Translations under genes and position numbers: made by a program
Notes under the pieces: generated by a model
Database searches by the model: none
What the model was told of the DNA's origin: nothing
What the model saw: the letters and a program-made list of their open reading frames with translations, nothing else
In this document: positions 11,237 through 42,535 of the stretch, one piece after another
Position numbering within the stretch: the first letter of the stretch is position 1
How the letters are laid out: the number at the start of each line of letters is the position of its first letter
NCBI GenBank assembly: GCA_017937095.1
Contig: JAGBEG010000018.1
Span: 62,001 to 126,000 of the forward strand
Length of the DNA stretch: 64,000 bases
Source: Roseburia sp.
GTDB taxonomy: Bacteria > Bacillota > Clostridia > Lachnospirales > Lachnospiraceae
Direction: 5' to 3'

Positions 11237-11309
11237 GCGCGAGTGGCTCAGTTGGTGGAGCACGACCTTGCCAAGGTCGGGGCCGCGGGTTCGAGTCCCG
11301 TCTCGCGCT
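11237..11309 (+). tRNA. tRNA-Gly (anticodon GCC)
   Basis: A full cloverleaf of 73 nt: acceptor GCGCGAG/CTCGCGC, D-arm GCTC/GAGC, anticodon stem CGACC/GGTCG around TTGCCAA (anticodon GCC), and T-arm GCGGG-TTCGAGT-CCCGT. The 3' CCA is not encoded. Confidence 0.97.
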
Positions 11310-11349: not shown

Positions 11350-11422
11350 GCGCGAGTGGCTCAGTTGGTGGAGCACGACCTTGCCAAGGTCGGGGCCGCG
11401 GGTTCGAGTCCCGTCTCGCGCT
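11350..11422 (+). tRNA. tRNA-Gly (anticodon GCC), second identical copy
   Basis: Identical over 73 nt to the tRNA at 11237-11309 and transcribed from the same promoter. The 40-nt spacer differs. A terminator follows at once. Confidence 0.97.
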
Positions 11423-35071: not shown

Positions 35072-36574
35072 TTACGCTAATTCATAGATTTTCGAATATT
35101 TCTCCTTAAAGTAACGGATCAGCGGCTTTGCAGATACCTCCTTGCCGCACACCTCCGCAATGACGTCCTTGGGCAGACGCGTGCTGCCGTACTGATGGAT
35201 CTTCTCGTTCAGCCACTTTGTGATCTCCCCGATACGCCCGTCCGCAAGCAGCTCGTCCACAGAGCCAAGCTCCGCCTCGATCGCCTCCAAAAACATGCCG
35301 TCATAGATGCTTCCGAGCAGATAGGACGGAAAATATCCAAAGGAGCCGTCCGCCCAGTGTGTATCCTGTAAGATGCCTTCGGCGTCATTTGCCGGAGTAA
35401 TCTGCAGGTATTCCTGCATTTTCTCGTTCCAGAGCTTTGGCAATTCCTCCACCGGAACATGCTCACGGAAAATCGCTTTTTCCATCTCATAGCGCAGAAT
35501 CACATGAAAACAATAGGTCAGCTCGTCCGCCTCCGTGCGGATCATGCTGTTCTCCACCTGATTGATTTCCCGATAGAACTCGTCGAGGGAAACCTCTTTA
35601 AACTGCGGCAGCAGCTCGCAGAGCCTGCCGTAAACCGGCGCCCAGAAATTGCGGTTCCGTCCGAGGATGTTCTCATAAAAGCGCGACTGGCTCTCATGAA
35701 CGCCCATGTATCTGCAGCTTCCCGCCACCGTGTGATCGTACTTAGGGTCGACATTCTGCTCAAAGATGCCGTGACCTCCCTCATGAATGGCGGAAAACAT
35801 CGACGAAAGCGGTGCATTTTCATAATAATGATTCGTGACGCGCACATCCTTTGACGAGAAATTCATCGTAAACGGATGCTCTGTCTCACCGACTGCGCCC
35901 GCATCCCTGCGAAAACCGATGTAATCAATCAGCATCCACTGTACCTTGCGCTGCGCGTCCGGGTCGGCATATGCCGAGAACACCTGCGGATGCGTATAAG
36001 GCTTCGCAGTGATCTGCTTTACCAGAGGAATCAGTTCCTTCTTCAGATCCTCAAAAAGTCCGTCAATTGTCGCAGAGTCCATTCCCTCCTCATATTGATT
36101 CAACAGGGCGTCGTAGACTTCCATCCCCGGGTCGGTATAGCCCGCCATCTCCGCCGTCATATCGATCATCTTCTTCAGATGCGGTGCAAAAGCGGAAAAA
36201 TCAGCGGCAGCCTTTGCTTCCTTCCATGCATTGCCGGACTCCGCCTGCGCCCGCACGAACGCCTCGTAGAAATCCGCCGGGATGCGCTTATTGCGGTCAT
36301 AGTCACGCTTCATGCGGGTCACAATAAATTTCCATGTATCGTCGAGCGCCTCATACTCTCCCGGCGCAGCGAGCGCTTCTAAGAACTCCCCTAGCTTTTC
36401 CGAGGTTTCCATCTCAAAGCTCTTCGTCGAAAAATAGGTCAGCGCCTCCACATGCGCCTTTTGTCCAAGCTTTGGTACCGTCGTCTGCATATCCCAGAAA
36501 ATCAGCTCCGTGACATGGTTATACTGGTCCATTTCCTCTAAATAGTGTTTAAATTCATCGAATATTTTACTCAT
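35072..36574 (-). CDS. M32 family metallocarboxypeptidase
   Basis: This 500-residue protein contains the HExxH zinc motif in FSAIHEGGHGIFEQN, the HPFT motif EHPFTMNFSSKDVRVTNHY and the downstream ESQSRFYENILGRN segment. These define carboxypeptidase Taq-type (M32) enzymes that trim C-terminal residues of peptides in the cytoplasm. I choose MSKIFDEFK (AAGGAAAAGTTT upstream). ATGs at 36592 and 36640 are less well placed. It is a single gene; the palindromic element lies upstream of it. Confidence 0.92.
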   Translation of the reverse strand: MSKIFDEFKHYLEEMDQYNHVTELIFWDMQTTVPKLGQKAHVEALTYFSTKSFEMETSEKLGEFLEALAAPGEYEALDDTWKFIVTRMKRDYDRNKRIPADFYEAFVRAQAESGNAWKEAKAAADFSAFAPHLKKMIDMTAEMAGYTDPGMEVYDALLNQYEEGMDSATIDGLFEDLKKELIPLVKQITAKPYTHPQVFSAYADPDAQRKVQWMLIDYIGFRRDAGAVGETEHPFTMNFSSKDVRVTNHYYENAPLSSMFSAIHEGGHGIFEQNVDPKYDHTVAGSCRYMGVHESQSRFYENILGRNRNFWAPVYGRLCELLPQFKEVSLDEFYREINQVENSMIRTEADELTYCFHVILRYEMEKAIFREHVPVEELPKLWNEKMQEYLQITPANDAEGILQDTHWADGSFGYFPSYLLGSIYDGMFLEAIEAELGSVDELLADGRIGEITKWLNEKIHQYGSTRLPKDVIAEVCGKEVSAKPLIRYFKEKYSKIYELA

Positions 36575-36702
36575 AAACTTTTCCTTTTCCATATATTTTC
36601 GCCCTGCAGTATGTGTCCGATTCCTACGTAATGCCGACACGGTATTATCTTATCATATCTCTATTTTTCTGTCACTGACTGTTTTCATATTATGCTGCCG
36701 TC

Positions 36703-37328
36703 CAAAAGCTTTGAGCCTCCGGTGCTGTCGACGAATACCTATTGGGAAATTGCATAATTCTTATTATGGACATTATAAAATCCCCGCATTCCAAATGAAG
36801 AACGGCTGTGTCAATTTGGTCGCAAAATCCGGCATTTCTAACGCGCCCGTTCTCACATCTTTGGTTTTCCGTGTCTTTCCAATGTTCGGGCACTCTGCCA
36901 GGATGTGTTCGCAAGCATAAATACAATATTAAGAAGTTTCGTGCGGCACCTGGCAGGCTTCTGAGCAAAGCGTAACCGCGCAGCAAGATGTTTGAGACGC
37001 CTTTTGCCAAGCTTTTGAATTGCAAACGACGTCGAGTTTCGAGCTGCGCGGTTTTATCGCAATTTTGCGAAGAAGCCTGCCTTAGTGCCGCTAGAAAATT
37101 CGCTCTATTGTCTTTCGCTTGTCGAAGCACATCCGGCAGATTCCCCGTCCAGTGCAAGAGACACGGAATTTGATGTTCGAATCGGGCGCGAAGAATTGCT
37201 CGGATTTTGTTCCAACAAATATGCCGCATTCCGTTTTCATTTCGGAATGCGGCATATTTCCGTTCTCATAATAAGAATTATGCATATCGTAATGAGTTCG
37301 TGGAGCAGCACCAGAGGCTCAAATTTTT
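36703..37328. repeat. Giant imperfect palindrome (about 620 bp fold-back element)
   Basis: The left half (about 36703-37010) is the degenerate reverse complement of the right half (about 37022-37328). Checked pairings are TTTGAGCCTC 36710-36719 with GAGGCTCAAA 37314-37323, a perfect 17-bp block 36752-36768 with 37267-37283, and CTGCCAGGATGTG from 36895 with CACATCCGGCAG ending 37139. A central GCGGCAC/GTGCCGC and CCGCGCAGC/GCTGCGCGG pair is also present. All pairs share the same centre near 37017. No gene is evident in it, although several frames stay open. It begins right at the stop codon of the neighbouring permease. Confidence 0.88.
37217..37259. other. Perfect 17-bp hairpin inside the right arm of the palindrome
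   Basis: 37217-37233 pairs without mismatch with 37243-37259 around a 9-nt loop (core ATGCCGCATTCCG/CGGAATGCGGCAT). The left arm lacks an equivalent perfect hairpin. Confidence 0.88.
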
Positions 37329-38036
37329 CTATCCGTTTACCTGCTGCCTGCGCAGCATCCCCCATGCCGCGAAAAACATTGCGGCGCAGGCAAACGCGAA
37401 CACCGCAAGCATTCCCGGCACTGTCAAAGGATTCTCTCCCCCGGACCGCGCGGCTGACAGCAAGCCGGAAAAAAATTCCGTGCGTAACAGAATACCCGGA
37501 AGGTAACAAATTGCCATGAAAAACAGCCACAGTCCGGCGACCGCCTTCACACCGAATTTCAGGATCAATGCCCCACAGAACATTTCGATTGCAATAAGTC
37601 CTGCAATCGTGCAGACCGACAATACAGGATAGCCAACCGCCGACAGCCCCGCCATCTCATAGACCGGAAGCCCAAACACTTTCAGATAGTATATTTTCTC
37701 AAACCCGTAAAGTACACGGATGAGCACACAGGCAAGAATCAGCTCCAACATGCCATGCGCAGCATAGCTTCTGACAAACTGCTTCCTTGTCGCTCCCATC
37801 GAAACAGAAAGCCCAAACGCACTGAGCATATTGTAGGTGCAGCCAAGCAGATGCGCCACGACCGTGCCAAATACCGCGATCACCGTTCCGAGAGGAAACG
37901 CCCTGACCATTCCGTCATCCCCTGCGCTGACCGCCGACCAGATTCCGGTGCCCAGAAGATACGCGCCGAGAATCCCGCCTATCAGCCAGTAAAACTCGTT
38001 TTTACCCATTTTACATTGTATCCGAAACATCTCCAT
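37329..38036 (-). CDS. ABC transporter membrane protein, second permease
   Basis: This protein of about 235 residues has around six hydrophobic helices (FYWLIGGILGAYLLGTGIW; LELILACVLIRVLYG; MFCGALILKFGVKAVAGLWLFFMAICYLPGILL). SMGATRKQFVRSYAAH is the cytoplasmic coupling-type segment often seen in bacitracin/lantibiotic-type ABC permeases. It is the last gene of the GntR-ATPase-permease-permease series. The start is MEMFRIQC (AAGGTG upstream). It shares an ALILKFGxK motif with the first permease, so the two are paralogs and probably form a heterodimer. Confidence 0.8.
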   Translation of the reverse strand: MEMFRIQCKMGKNEFYWLIGGILGAYLLGTGIWSAVSAGDDGMVRAFPLGTVIAVFGTVVAHLLGCTYNMLSAFGLSVSMGATRKQFVRSYAAHGMLELILACVLIRVLYGFEKIYYLKVFGLPVYEMAGLSAVGYPVLSVCTIAGLIAIEMFCGALILKFGVKAVAGLWLFFMAICYLPGILLRTEFFSGLLSAARSGGENPLTVPGMLAVFAFACAAMFFAAWGMLRRQQVNG

Positions 38037-38109
38037 ACCAGTATCACACCTTTCCAATGCCTGCAGCCTTCTTCGCACTTCCATGCCATGCCACAGGCAA
38101 AAACATTTT

Positions 38110-38847
38110 CTACATGCGCACCTCATAGCGCATCACCGTTCTTTTCAACACCAGATACCCTACAATGTATGCCGCCACGTCAACTGTAAGCAGCACACCT
38201 ACAATCCTTTTTATCATCTGTAACACATGCGCATCCAGCAGCATAGAAAGAATCTCTGCATCATCGATCTGCCCGGTTCCGACCGAAAAGCCAACGGTAA
38301 GCGCCCCTGCAAAAACAGCCAGTGCAAAGACGATAATATAGATTGCCGTACCTTTTGCGCCAAATTTCAGGATCAGCGCTGCACCGAACTGCCCGATTGC
38401 CGCAATCGCAAGTAAAATTCCCGCTGCCGCGGCAAATCCCGTGCCTGCGTATGCAAAAAACTCCCGCCCGGATACTGCCGCCATTTTGCCTGCAGCCAGT
38501 TCAACAATACCAACGATCAGCAGATTCTGCCCTACCGCGAGCAGATTCGAAAGCTGCATTCCGGCAACCGCCTCCCTGCGCCCGGAACCAAACGAGAGCG
38601 CAAGCGGCAGATTATACGTTGGATATGAAAACGGCAGCACAAAGATTATGATTCCTTCCATCATCACAGCATACGAGGCTCTCAGCAGAAAAAGTTCCGT
38701 TCCTTTCATATCTTCGTTAATCAGAACCGGCAGAAACAGGACATAGACTGCACCGATTACCAGAACCATTAAGAAAATTTTTTCCACATAGCCGCCCCAG
38801 AATCGTACTGTTCGTGATACACTCTGCTTTTTCATTGATTTTTCCAT
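38110..38847 (-). CDS. ABC transporter membrane protein, first permease
   Basis: This 245-residue protein has about six helices (KIFLMVLVIGAVYVLFLPVLI; MMEGIIIFVLPFSYPTYNLPLALSFGSGRREAVAGMQLSN). The FGSGRREAVAGMQ loop parallels SMGATRKQF in the second permease. GGAGGAATAGCG precedes the ATG, which starts 2 nt after the ATPase gene ends, so the genes are translationally coupled. Substrate unknown; the operon type (GntR regulator of the YtrA kind with ABC genes) is often linked to cell-envelope stress or antimicrobial peptides. Confidence 0.8.
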   Translation of the reverse strand: MEKSMKKQSVSRTVRFWGGYVEKIFLMVLVIGAVYVLFLPVLINEDMKGTELFLLRASYAVMMEGIIIFVLPFSYPTYNLPLALSFGSGRREAVAGMQLSNLLAVGQNLLIVGIVELAAGKMAAVSGREFFAYAGTGFAAAAGILLAIAAIGQFGAALILKFGAKGTAIYIIVFALAVFAGALTVGFSVGTGQIDDAEILSMLLDAHVLQMIKRIVGVLLTVDVAAYIVGYLVLKRTVMRYEVRM

Positions 38848-40394: not shown

Positions 40395-40710
40395 GTTCTT
40401 CATATCTGTCCGCATGACACAGGCGTTGAGAAGAAATAGTAGATTTCTGCAACATTCCAGAGAGAAGGCGGTCGGTGCAAGCCTTTATGGAGCAGCCATC
40501 GAACCGGTCTTTGAGCTGCAGTTTGAACGCGATCGTTGTTTGATCGCAAGTAGGCACTGCCGGGTTCTCCCGTTACAGAGATGATGTATCGGACTCCTTT
40601 GACGGACGCCCTGTACAGATGAGTGTGGATTTTCCAAAATCAGGTGGTACCACGGACGATTGTATGTTCGCCCTGAATCGGCAGTTTGCCGGTTTGGGGC
40701 TTTTTTTGTG
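40395..40710 (+). promoter_or_regulatory. T-box riboswitch of proS
   Basis: It contains the AGTA loop-E strand (near 40438-40441), the apical GGTCGGTGCAAGCC segment, the opposing GAACCGG with a proline CCG at 40504-40506 as candidate specifier, and the T-box core AGGTGGTACCACG (40641-40653). The terminator GCCCTGAATCGGC (40669-40681) with GCCGGTTTGGGGC (40687-40699) and eight T follows. The specifier alignment is one base off the commonest layout, so the codon call is tentative. Confidence 0.85.
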
Positions 40711-40783
40711 CAGCGGAAAATTCCTTTTGTCACACAACTGCACTTCGCGCACAAATTTTTATTCTAAGAAAGGAGATTTTATC

Positions 40784-42535
40784 ATGAAATTAAGCAAACT
40801 TGTTGGAGATCGTTTTAAGGAACGCCCCGCCGACTGCATCATCGACAGCCATGCCCTGATGCTCCGCGGAGGTTATATCAAGTATGTGGCAAACGGCATC
40901 TACTCCTCTTATCTGCCGCTGCGCCGGATCACGCACAAGATCGAGCAGATCATCCGGGAGGAGATGGACGCAATCGACGGACAGGAAGTACAGTTTCCGG
41001 TCGCTCTTCCCGCTTCGCTGTGGGAAGAATCCGGGCGCTATGAGAGCGTCGGAAAAGAGCTTTTGCGCTTTGCCGACCGGAACGGGAGCCCTATGGTGCT
41101 TGGCATGACGCATGAAGAAGCGGCAGTACAGCTCGTGCGGGAATACGGGCAGACCTACAGCAGATATCCGTTTATGATCTATCAGATTCAGACCAAATTC
41201 CGCGACGAGGCAAGACCGCGCGCCGGGTTGATCCGCGTGCGGGAATTTACGATGAAGGACGCTTATTCCTTCCACACCTCGCAGGAGGATCTGGAGGAAT
41301 ATTATATGCGCTGCCATGCCGCTTACGAGCGCATTTTTGCAAGAGTAGGTGTGCCGGAGGTCATCTCCGTCGCCTCCGATTCCGGCATGATGGGCGGAAA
41401 TCTCTCACATGAGTTCATGCTGCTCACCCCCGTAGGCGAGGATTCGATCGCGCTCTGTGATGCCTGCGGCTACCGCGCCAACATGGAGGCTGCGGAATGC
41501 ATCACAGAACCTGTTTCGGCTTGTTCCGAAGATGGTTCCCGAAATTCCCATGCGCCGCTAACCGAGGTGCACACGCCGGACTGTCACACTATAGAAGAGG
41601 TCTGCGCGTTTTTGCACAGCACGCCGGAAATGAGCTGCAAGGCGGTCGTCTATCAAAAAAATACGGACGACAGCTACATCGTGCTTTTTCTGCGGGGCGA
41701 TCTTGAGGTCAACGAAACGAAACTGACGAATTATCTGGGCTGTGAGGTGCATCCCGCCGTTATCACGGAAGACTCCGGGCTTACCGCCGGATTTATCGGT
41801 CCTTACGGGCTGACGAAATGCCTTGCTGCCGGAAGTACGGTTCTGTTTGACCGTTCCCTGGAGCACGCCGCCGATATTGTCTGCGGCGCGAACAGACCGG
41901 ATTATCACTATACCGAATTGTCTATAGACCGGGATCTCGCCGCAGAATACGATATTTCTTTTCACGATTTTGCCAAGATTACAGAGGGCGGTATCTGCCC
42001 GCACTGCGGCAAAAAGACCATCCGCATCTCGCGCGGAATCGAAGTCGGAAACATCTTCCAGCTCGGCACGAAGTACACGGAAGCCATGCATATGGAGTAT
42101 ACTGACAGCGACGGAAGCGTTCACACTCCTGTTATGGGCTGCTACGGCATCGGCGTCGGAAGGCTCGCCGCCTCTGTCTGCGAGGCGCATCACGACGAGT
42201 ACGGCCCGATCTGGCCGCTTTCGATCGCACCATGGCAGGTGCACCTTTGTGCCGTACGCGTAGACGATGCGTCGGTGCGCGCCTGCGCTGATTCGCTCTA
42301 TCAACAGTTAAACGGCGCGCATGTGGAGGTTCTCTACGATGACCGAAGCGTCCGTGCCGGAATCATGTTCTCGGATGCAGACTTGCTCGGCATTCCCTAC
42401 CGCATCATCGTAAGCCCGCGCAACCTCTCCGAGCACTGTGTGGAGCTGGTAAGCCGCGATAAGAGCCTGCAGGAAAAGGTTCCGCAAGAGGCGGTTGTGG
42501 ACAGAATCAGACAACTGCTACGTGAAGAGCGGTAA
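40784..42535 (+). CDS. proS: Prolyl-tRNA synthetase (bacterial type)
   Basis: This is a 583-residue class II synthetase. Motif 1 region lies around QFPVALPASLWEESGRY. Motif 2 is TKFRDEARPRAGLIRVREFTMKDAYSF and motif 3 is GCYGIGVGRLAASVCE. An editing INS domain of about 160 residues lies between motifs 2 and 3 (SCKAVVYQKNTDDSYIVLFLRGDLEVNETKL), as in bacterial ProS. It joins proline to tRNA-Pro. AAAGGAGATTTTATC precedes the ATG. It is monocistronic and controlled by the upstream T-box. Confidence 0.96.
   Translation: MKLSKLVGDRFKERPADCIIDSHALMLRGGYIKYVANGIYSSYLPLRRITHKIEQIIREEMDAIDGQEVQFPVALPASLWEESGRYESVGKELLRFADRNGSPMVLGMTHEEAAVQLVREYGQTYSRYPFMIYQIQTKFRDEARPRAGLIRVREFTMKDAYSFHTSQEDLEEYYMRCHAAYERIFARVGVPEVISVASDSGMMGGNLSHEFMLLTPVGEDSIALCDACGYRANMEAAECITEPVSACSEDGSRNSHAPLTEVHTPDCHTIEEVCAFLHSTPEMSCKAVVYQKNTDDSYIVLFLRGDLEVNETKLTNYLGCEVHPAVITEDSGLTAGFIGPYGLTKCLAAGSTVLFDRSLEHAADIVCGANRPDYHYTELSIDRDLAAEYDISFHDFAKITEGGICPHCGKKTIRISRGIEVGNIFQLGTKYTEAMHMEYTDSDGSVHTPVMGCYGIGVGRLAASVCEAHHDEYGPIWPLSIAPWQVHLCAVRVDDASVRACADSLYQQLNGAHVEVLYDDRSVRAGIMFSDADLLGIPYRIIVSPRNLSEHCVELVSRDKSLQEKVPQEAVVDRIRQLLREER

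What the first reader, a model, noticed from the sequence alone, without database searches (positions are those of the whole stretch)
36703..37328. 620-bp imperfect palindrome: a giant fold-back element with no gene
The sequence folds on itself end to end. Independent blocks, from the outer TTTGAGCCTC/GAGGCTCAAA and a perfect 17-bp match to inner GCGGCAC/GTGCCGC and CCGCGCAGC/GCTGCGCGG pairs, all share the centre near 37017. The arms differ at many positions (roughly 65-75% identical by eye), so this is an old or structurally maintained palindrome. It starts at the permease stop codon and ends before the M32 gene. It could be a large structured RNA, a non-autonomous fold-back mobile element, or a decayed inverted duplication. 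The frames read from each end (MHNSYYEN on the right, HNSYYGHY on the left) stay open for 55 or more codons, so duplicated coding ancestry is possible. Nothing in the ordinary gene annotation explains it.
Basis: partly seen in the sequence, partly recalled or inferred. Interest (0 to 1): 0.78.

Follow-up and report, generated by a model that had tools for sequence, protein, structure and literature searches.

The report
Giant mobile hairpins at gene ends
The 620-base palindrome is one copy of an apparently undescribed family of giant DNA hairpins scattered through several gut-bacterial genomes, often where two genes end face to face, whose two arms have changed together so as to stay paired.

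Summary
Window 36705-37328 is one imperfect palindrome: 624 bp, arms 71% identical, RNA fold z = -16.6. It is not a one-off. The inner part (36753-37285) occurs 7 times nearly full length in this genome, this copy included, plus one internally deleted copy. At least 64 sites in Roseburia hominis (identified by exact chromosome length) carry the element. A covariance model of the apex also finds it in four more species of the genus and in two other genera. The arms covary: 92-97% of apical cells are paired, and 31-41 of 49 pairs have double changes (0 of 500 shuffles reach this). Meanwhile asymmetric loop motifs stay fixed. G-U and A-C mismatches are about equal in the main set, so no single RNA strand is clearly favoured. 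Copies sit mostly at gene 3' ends; 29 of 40 in R. hominis lie between convergent genes. One R. hominis copy sits exactly where another copy's terminator-like apex should be, which shows mobility. No conserved protein, Rfam family, plasmid or phage match, or associated Y1 transposase was found. Best reading: a mobile fold-back element that takes the place of terminator-type hairpins and then acts as a two-sided 3'-end hairpin. The function is inferred.

The parts
36705..37328 (.). the whole imperfect palindrome of this copy
   Evidence: self-alignment, 624 bp, 71%; fold z -16.6
36753..37285 (+). repeat body shared with 6 other near-full-length copies in this genome (94, 91, 83, 82, 75, 74% identical) and one internally deleted copy
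   Evidence: query positions 64-596
36705..36727 (.). left arm of the outer stem, specific to this locus
   Evidence: I1, 23 nt, 87% complementary to 37306-37328; outside the shared repeat
37306..37328 (.). right arm of the outer stem, with a T-run at its end
36943..37091 (+). apical module used for covariance model R1; it matches copies in 8 genomes of 3 genera
36990..36996 (+). fixed left apical loop motif GTTTGAG
   Evidence: pattern G[TC][CT]TGA[GA] in 58 of 59 copies
37033..37038 (+). fixed right apical loop motif CGAGTT
   Evidence: CGAGTT, or CGAG alone, in 58 of 59 copies
37217..37259 (.). perfect 17-bp local hairpin in the right arm, terminator-like in look; related short hairpins stand alone elsewhere in this genome and in genome G020
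37329..38126 (-). flanking permease-like ORF whose stop codon abuts the palindrome
35072..36640 (-). flanking M32 carboxypeptidase-like ORF (next gene downstream, same strand)

Best explanation
This is one copy of a family of giant, non-coding, mobile fold-back elements (mostly about 0.5-0.7 kb) in Roseburia and some other Lachnospiraceae. SHOWN: many dispersed copies; arms kept complementary by paired changes while certain mismatched loops stay fixed; placement mostly at gene 3' ends, chiefly between convergent genes; and one case in which a whole element occupies the place of the A-run / GC-stem / T-run apex of another element. INFERRED: the element spreads by taking the place of, or entering, an intrinsic-terminator-type hairpin. 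Once there, the growing arms zip up behind RNA polymerase coming from either side, giving each neighbouring mRNA a very stable 3' hairpin that ends or protects it and keeps convergent transcripts apart. INFERRED: DNA template switching between arms occasionally extends or homogenises the palindrome at its edges, and selection on the hairpin and its loops keeps the body paired. The enzyme that moves it is unknown.
For: Copies: 7 near-full-length in this genome; at least 64 sites in R. hominis (counted); 6 of 62 genomes of the genus by model R1, this one included; G273, another genus, 20 matches; G666, a third genus, 5. Covariation: 47-copy alignment, 138 consensus pairs, 5828 Watson-Crick of 6443 cells; A2, 96.6% of cells paired and 31 of 49 pairs doubly changed, 0 of 500 shuffles, slid versions at most 42.5%; copies of other species, not used to build the model, 92.2% and 41 of 49, 0 of 500. 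Fixed loops: 10 conserved mismatched positions, with at most 2 of 10 repaired in any of 47 copies; apical motifs in 58 of 59 copies. Placement: 29 of 40 convergent, 10 tandem, 1 divergent in R. hominis; 5 convergent and 3 tandem of 8 here; background in the window 7 convergent of 45 intergenic gaps; 17 of the 29 convergent copies reach to within 20 bp of both stop codons. Mobility: inner element 96811-97403 in L057 stands where 86 nt of apex are missing from the outer copy. Two-sidedness: GU 347 against AC 317 of 7769 cells.
Against: No transcript data. A/T-runs at both ends in only 13 of 41 copies of R. hominis and this genome, and runs are as common 120 bp inside (17 of 41); in 23 copies of other species only 1 has both. 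The simple terminator scan finds no excess in the window (1 found, 1.3 expected; it cannot see long hairpins). Convergent placement could merely mean that insertions elsewhere are lost; outside R. hominis only 10 of 25 copies are convergent, with 3 divergent. In 25 copies of other species GU exceeds AC (34 against 14 outside helix 3), under a model made on the + strand, so some strand preference is possible. The measure 'further pair types' does not beat the shuffles (9 and 273 of 500). No mobilising enzyme was found. Gene calls come from a crude ORF caller.
Confidence: 0.6

Rival explanations
1. Purely selfish fold-back DNA, like a giant MITE or REPIN: the hairpin and its fixed loops are the recognition structure of an unknown transposase or DNA-processing enzyme that acts on single-stranded DNA. 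It sits at gene ends only because insertions there do no harm.
For: Patchy spread among species, a nested copy, closely similar copies (94, 91%) in this genome, no mismatch strand bias in the main set, asymmetric loops fixed across genera.
Against: No associated enzyme: Y1_Tnp in 3 of 7 genomes with the element and in 9 of 18 others, and absent from this genome; IS1182-type PF13751 absent from this genome and R. hominis. No target-site duplication was recognised by eye. Most R. hominis copies are old (about 73-84% identical to the L042 copy) yet still structured.
Confidence: 0.3
2. A neutral, self-repairing palindrome: DNA polymerase template switching between the arms keeps them complementary and lengthens them, so the double changes are gene conversion between arms and not selection.
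For: No mismatch strand bias in the main set. In copy L070 the left apex equals the reverse complement of its right apex. In R. hominis 5 of 34 right-gene and 5 of 33 left-gene coding tails match the opposite arm better than 99% of mismatched pairings. At an orthologous gene pair the palindrome stops before the stop codons in this genome (L030) but overlaps both genes in R. hominis (L087). That template switching homogenises inverted-repeat arms is stated in the abstract of PMC8604942 (listing).
Against: Conversion would erase the fixed mismatches, but at most 2 of 10 are repaired in any copy, and the U.U mismatch at columns 248/378 is kept in 46 of 47 copies although its neighbours have changed on both sides. 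Loop motifs are fixed in 58 of 59 copies. One of the left-tail matches (L080) comes from both neighbours being AraC-type genes, and in L091 both gene tails resemble those of G020 (by eye).
Confidence: 0.2
3. A large non-coding RNA gene family transcribed from one strand only.
For: Strong covariation, fixed purine-rich loops that read as tandem G.A on the + strand (YGAR-type pattern in 49 of 59), and a mild GU excess in other species.
Against: GU 347 against AC 317 in the main set; the minus strand folds as well (mean -319.9 against -313.8 kcal/mol; + more stable in 13 of 47); no orientation preference relative to tandem genes (7 against 6); promoter scan at chance (2 found, 1.7 expected).
Confidence: 0.12
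4. A one-off decayed inverted duplication, possibly of coding origin.
For: Arms only 71% identical; long open frame in this copy.
Against: Dispersed family; frame not conserved; pairing maintained.
Confidence: 0.01

Closest known systems
REP / BIME / REPIN elements (repetitive extragenic palindromes and RAYT-mobilised doublets)
   Same: Dispersed intergenic palindromes, mostly downstream of genes and between convergent or same-direction genes, sometimes providing or overlapping stop codons (passages of PMC3733652)
   Different: REPs are 20-40 bp (abstract of PMC3733652); these are mostly 250-760 bp, with internal loops fixed across three genera, and the Y1 transposase is not associated
Miniature inverted-repeat transposable elements (MITEs)
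   Same: Non-coding, mobile, inverted repeats, copies without an enzyme
   Different: The inverted repeat runs the full length rather than only at the ends; no partner transposase or target duplication found
Intrinsic (bidirectional) terminators between convergent genes
   Same: Position, GC-rich basal stem, A-run and T-run in part of the copies
   Different: Ten times longer, repeated as a family, runs absent from many copies
IS elements that target REPs, and group IIC introns that target terminators
   Same: Preference for palindromic or terminator-type targets (abstract of PMC1525189 seen in listing for IS in REPs; the intron comparison is recalled)
   Different: No transposase or reverse-transcriptase gene in the element; structure is one long hairpin
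Integron attC sites (recalled)
   Same: Imperfect hairpins with fixed unpaired bases near gene 3' ends (recalled)
   Different: attC are of order 60-140 bp (recalled) and tied to integron integrases, for which no search was made here

Membership tests
REP/BIME/REPIN | palindromic unit of about 20-40 bp | tested here: not met
   body 533 bp, palindrome 624 bp
REP/BIME/REPIN | association with a RAYT-type Y1 transposase | tested here: not met
   PF01797 absent in this genome; present in 3 of 7 genomes with the element and 9 of 18 others
REP/BIME/REPIN | extragenic, mostly downstream of or between convergent genes | tested here: met
MITE | mobile, non-coding, multicopy | tested here: met
MITE | terminal inverted repeats shared with an autonomous element | tested here: inconclusive
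   no partner found; only two transposase families searched, PF13751 in 4 genomes and PF01797 in 25
MITE | target-site duplication | tested here: inconclusive
   none recognised by eye at the ends of the copies of this genome; empty sites in sister strains not available
Intrinsic terminator | GC-rich stem followed by a T-run | tested here: inconclusive
   T-run at the right end in 21 of 41, A-run at the left end in 16, both in 13; 3, 2 and 1 of 23 in other species
Intrinsic terminator | transcripts end there | not testable with these tools
   no RNA data
Known Rfam RNA family | match above gathering score | tested here: not met
   no match in the element at gathering score; sub-threshold matches only to microRNA precursors
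Structured RNA or DNA hairpin under selection | compensatory changes beyond shuffles | tested here: met
   with one of five measures not met
Structured RNA, one strand | G-U favoured over A-C | tested here: inconclusive
   347 against 317 in 47 copies; 33 against 50 with GU disallowed in the prediction; 34 against 14 in 25 copies of other species outside helix 3
Protein-coding gene | conserved frame | tested here: not met
IS200/IS605 or IS1182 passenger | cognate transposase in the same genome | tested here: not met
   PF01797 and PF13751 absent from this genome
Integron attC | integron integrase partner | not tested
   no search for integron integrases was made

The most novel reading that the evidence does not exclude
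A new class of mobile element that is nothing but one giant hairpin. It spreads hairpin-for-hairpin, taking the place of terminator hairpins between convergent genes through a single-stranded or template-switch route. Its fixed G.A-rich internal loops are read by a dedicated host or element protein, so that it serves both neighbouring genes as a several-hundred-base 3' RNA structure.
Probability: 0.3. Interest if true: 0.9.

Novelty: new variant of a known kind. Interest (0 to 1): 0.78.

Why it matters
Bacterial palindromic repeats are usually tens of bases long, and long palindromes are commonly held to be unstable (recalled). Here a gut commensal with a finished genome carries at least 64 palindromes, of about 0.3 to 1.2 kb in the copies measured, whose pairing and loops have been kept over divergence between genera. 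That makes an old question directly testable in a culturable organism: are dispersed palindromes at gene ends selfish, or are they used by the host as two-sided transcript boundaries? It also offers a natural record of how large palindromes grow and survive. Genome annotation currently reads them as empty intergenic DNA or spurious ORFs.

Tried and rejected
One-off decayed duplication: rejected by the copies. Coding ancestry: rejected, frame not conserved. Known RNA: no Rfam match. IS1182-type transposase as mobiliser, suggested to me by the CTGYCGCA ends (recalled resemblance): absent here and in R. hominis, and the ends of the few copies fetched do not carry the motif as a terminal repeat. 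RAYT/IS200 Y1 transposase: no association. Plasmid and phage relatives: none; viral contigs: none by pattern. The named-genome pattern scan gave two stretches: L127 is real and the same stretch as in G058; L126 was chance; that collection may leave out records near this genome.

A first palindrome-length script used scores too lax and ran into the flanks; it was replaced. The G-U/A-C test was first made on pairs predicted on one strand (GU 307, AC 136), which is biased, then on strand-symmetric sets. In one search the 18 'locus-specific' copies were chosen by eye; 17 of 18 exceed 95% of cross pairings, while the 22 copies with the shared outer layer do not (0 of 22), as expected when the outer layer is family sequence. 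In some searches and 59 copy L057 was dropped from, or given hand-set limits in, the length-dependent counts because it is nested. Small nested hairpins with the same outer motif were found in G058 (6, control 0) but not above control in this genome (1, control 1) and not in R. hominis. The shared insertion sites between genomes are too few to prove common descent of the insertions.

Literature: searches listed no description of such elements; only the listed titles and abstract starts were seen, and several lists were capped. Passages were searched in PMC4645204 (R. hominis genome; its abstract also), PMC7478625 (Roseburia comparison: 'palindrom' and 'hairpin' absent), PMC3733652 and PMC12306157; no paper was read whole.

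Full report
WHAT IS THERE. The window holds a single imperfect palindrome at 36705-37328, 624 bp, with arms 71% identical (466 of 656 aligned positions), centred at about 37017. As RNA it folds to -304 kcal/mol, 16.6 standard deviations below 20 shuffles. It lies between two minus-strand ORFs, one base from the stop of the permease-like ORF. No Rfam family matches it.

IT IS A FAMILY. Searching the window's own genome with 36690-37340 shows that 36753-37285 recurs: seven near-full-length copies including this one (the others 94, 91, 83, 82, 75 and 74% identical), one copy with an internal deletion, and short pieces. The outer 43-50 bp on each side of this copy is not shared and is a stem of this locus. 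By DNA search 4 of 98 relatives, this genome included, have matches. One of them, G035, is a single 3,592,125-base contig, which is exactly the published length of the Roseburia hominis A2-183 chromosome (abstract of PMC4645204). So the window's genus is most likely Roseburia in the sense of GTDB (inference). In R. hominis the union of three searches gives 64 distinct sites (counted); only 40 and 51 candidates were scored in the two main searches, so this is a lower bound.

MODEL SEARCH. A covariance model of the apical 146 positions, built from 28 copies of two genomes, matches 6 of 62 genomes of the genus, this one included (G000, G013, G035, G047, G050, G058). It matches 2 of 299 drawn from the family, one being this genome and the other G273 of another genus, where a fuller scan gives 20 matches. 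It matches 2 of 392 drawn from the order, one being this genome and the other G666 of a third genus (5 matches). Few candidates per genome were scored in the large scans, so absences are weak. No plasmid or phage record matches.

THE PAIRING IS KEPT. On 47 copies (40 of R. hominis, 7 of this genome) 138 consensus pairs have 5828 Watson-Crick, 307 G-U, 136 A-C and 172 other cells. Single pairs show three or four Watson-Crick types with no break, for example TA 25, GC 15, CG 7. On the 28-copy apical alignment 96.6% of cells are paired and 31 of 49 pairs have double changes, which 0 of 500 shuffles reach; sliding the partner drops pairing to 34-43%. On 28 rows from other species, none used in the model (25 copies, 3 of them also read on the reverse strand), 92.2% are paired and 41 of 49 pairs have double changes, again 0 of 500. 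One measure, further pair types, does not exceed the shuffles (9 and 273 of 500). That second alignment is fitted to the model and so leans towards it.

THE LOOPS ARE KEPT TOO. Ten positions are conserved as mismatches, and no copy of 47 has more than two of them repaired. The apical loop motifs (left G[TC][CT]TGA[GA], right CGAGTT or CGAG) are each present in 58 of 59 copies from eight genomes (17 of the R. hominis sites were included). They read as tandem G.A mismatches on the + strand; that reading is mine. One copy, L070, has a left apex that is the reverse complement of its right apex, so arms can be copied onto each other, but this is rare.

WHICH NUCLEIC ACID. If one RNA strand were selected, G-U should exceed A-C. 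With pairs predicted on both strands the counts are 347 and 317, and with G-U disallowed 33 and 50. The minus strand folds slightly better on average. Among 25 copies of other species G-U exceeds A-C, 76 to 24, or 34 to 14 without helix 3, but the model was made on the + strand. So the structure is kept in DNA, or in RNA from both sides, with a possible mild preference that I cannot settle.

WHERE COPIES SIT. With a crude ORF caller, R. hominis copies are 29 convergent, 10 tandem and 1 divergent of 40. Here they are 5 convergent and 3 tandem of 8. In the other species they are 10 convergent, 10 tandem, 3 divergent and 2 at contig ends of 25. The window's own background is 7 convergent of 45 gaps. 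In 17 of the 29 convergent R. hominis copies the palindrome comes to within 20 bp of, or past, both stop codons, and in 10 it runs more than 5 bp into a gene end. Among tandem copies the element is oriented with the genes 7 times and against them 6 times. A- and T-runs flank both ends in 13 of 41 copies but are as frequent 120 bp inside, and are rare in other species (1 of 23 with both).

IT MOVES. In R. hominis locus L057 an outer copy is interrupted. Its left arm aligns with L056 to position 824 and its right arm from 911, so 86 nt of apex are missing; between them stands a complete element in the opposite orientation, 96811-97403. The junction reads A-rich, then the inner element's basal stem, then TTTTAT, exactly where other copies have A-rich, CG-rich apical stem, TTTTAT. 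So an element occupies the place of a terminator-like hairpin. The whole is a 1169-bp palindrome. Whether the old hairpin was entered and then lost, or replaced in one step, is not known.

EDGES GROW. In 18 R. hominis copies chosen by eye for unusual ends, the left and right ends match each other better than 95% of cross pairings in 17. Coding tails of neighbouring genes match the opposite arm above 99% of cross pairings in 5 of 34 (right genes) and 5 of 33 (left genes); L080's left-tail match is explained by two AraC-type neighbours, and for L091 the tails resemble those of G020. At one orthologous gene pair both this genome (L030) and R. hominis (L087) carry the element, and only the latter overlaps the genes. 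In G020 the sites orthologous to L091 and L095 hold short hairpins. This fits edge growth by template switching, or selection for a longer stem; I cannot separate them.

MECHANISM AND RANKING. I favour a mobile fold-back element that settles at terminator-type hairpins and works as a two-sided 3'-end hairpin (0.6 for the whole, of which the family, pairing and mobility are shown and the transcript role is inferred). Rivals, which overlap in part: selfish hairpin DNA with an unknown enzyme (0.3), neutral template-switch maintenance (0.2), one-strand RNA (0.12). The enzyme is unknown: Y1 transposase is not associated (3 of 7 with the element, 9 of 18 without) and PF13751 is absent here and in R. 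hominis.

NOVELTY. Dispersed palindromes at gene ends are a known kind (REPs, 20-40 bp, PMC3733652). A 0.5-0.7 kb, loop-conserved, covarying form was not found in the searches, which saw only listings of an open-access library. I therefore call it a new variant of a known kind.

Noticed in passing
L057, genome G035 C1:96528-97696: Nested palindrome of 1169 bp: one element inside another, in place of its apex.
   Followed up: yes
L070 (R. hominis C1:1696732-1697121): Left apex is the reverse complement of the right apex: an arm-to-arm copying event.
   Followed up: partly
G058, six places, for example C9:118388-118446: Small dispersed hairpins with GGCTGCCGCA ends and a nested inner palindrome, 6 by pattern against 0 by the control pattern.
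   Followed up: no
G020 loci L051 and L055: Short terminator-like hairpins related to window 37217-37259 at the gene pairs where R. hominis has giant elements; possibly collapsed copies.
   Followed up: partly
L039 (this genome C24:286743-286828): An 86-bp hairpin that resembles only the outer ends of the window copy, with the body missing.
   Followed up: partly
L061, L063, L064 and L066 (R. hominis): A subgroup whose apical module is about 30 nt longer (176-178 against about 146 nt).
   Followed up: no
window 40417-40678: T-box leader (115.6 bits) upstream of and partly overlapping the 638-aa ORF at 40619-42535, which looks like prolyl-tRNA synthetase (the gene name is my reading).
   Followed up: no
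window 11237-11309 and 11350-11422: Two tRNA genes with identical scores, 40 bp apart.
   Followed up: no
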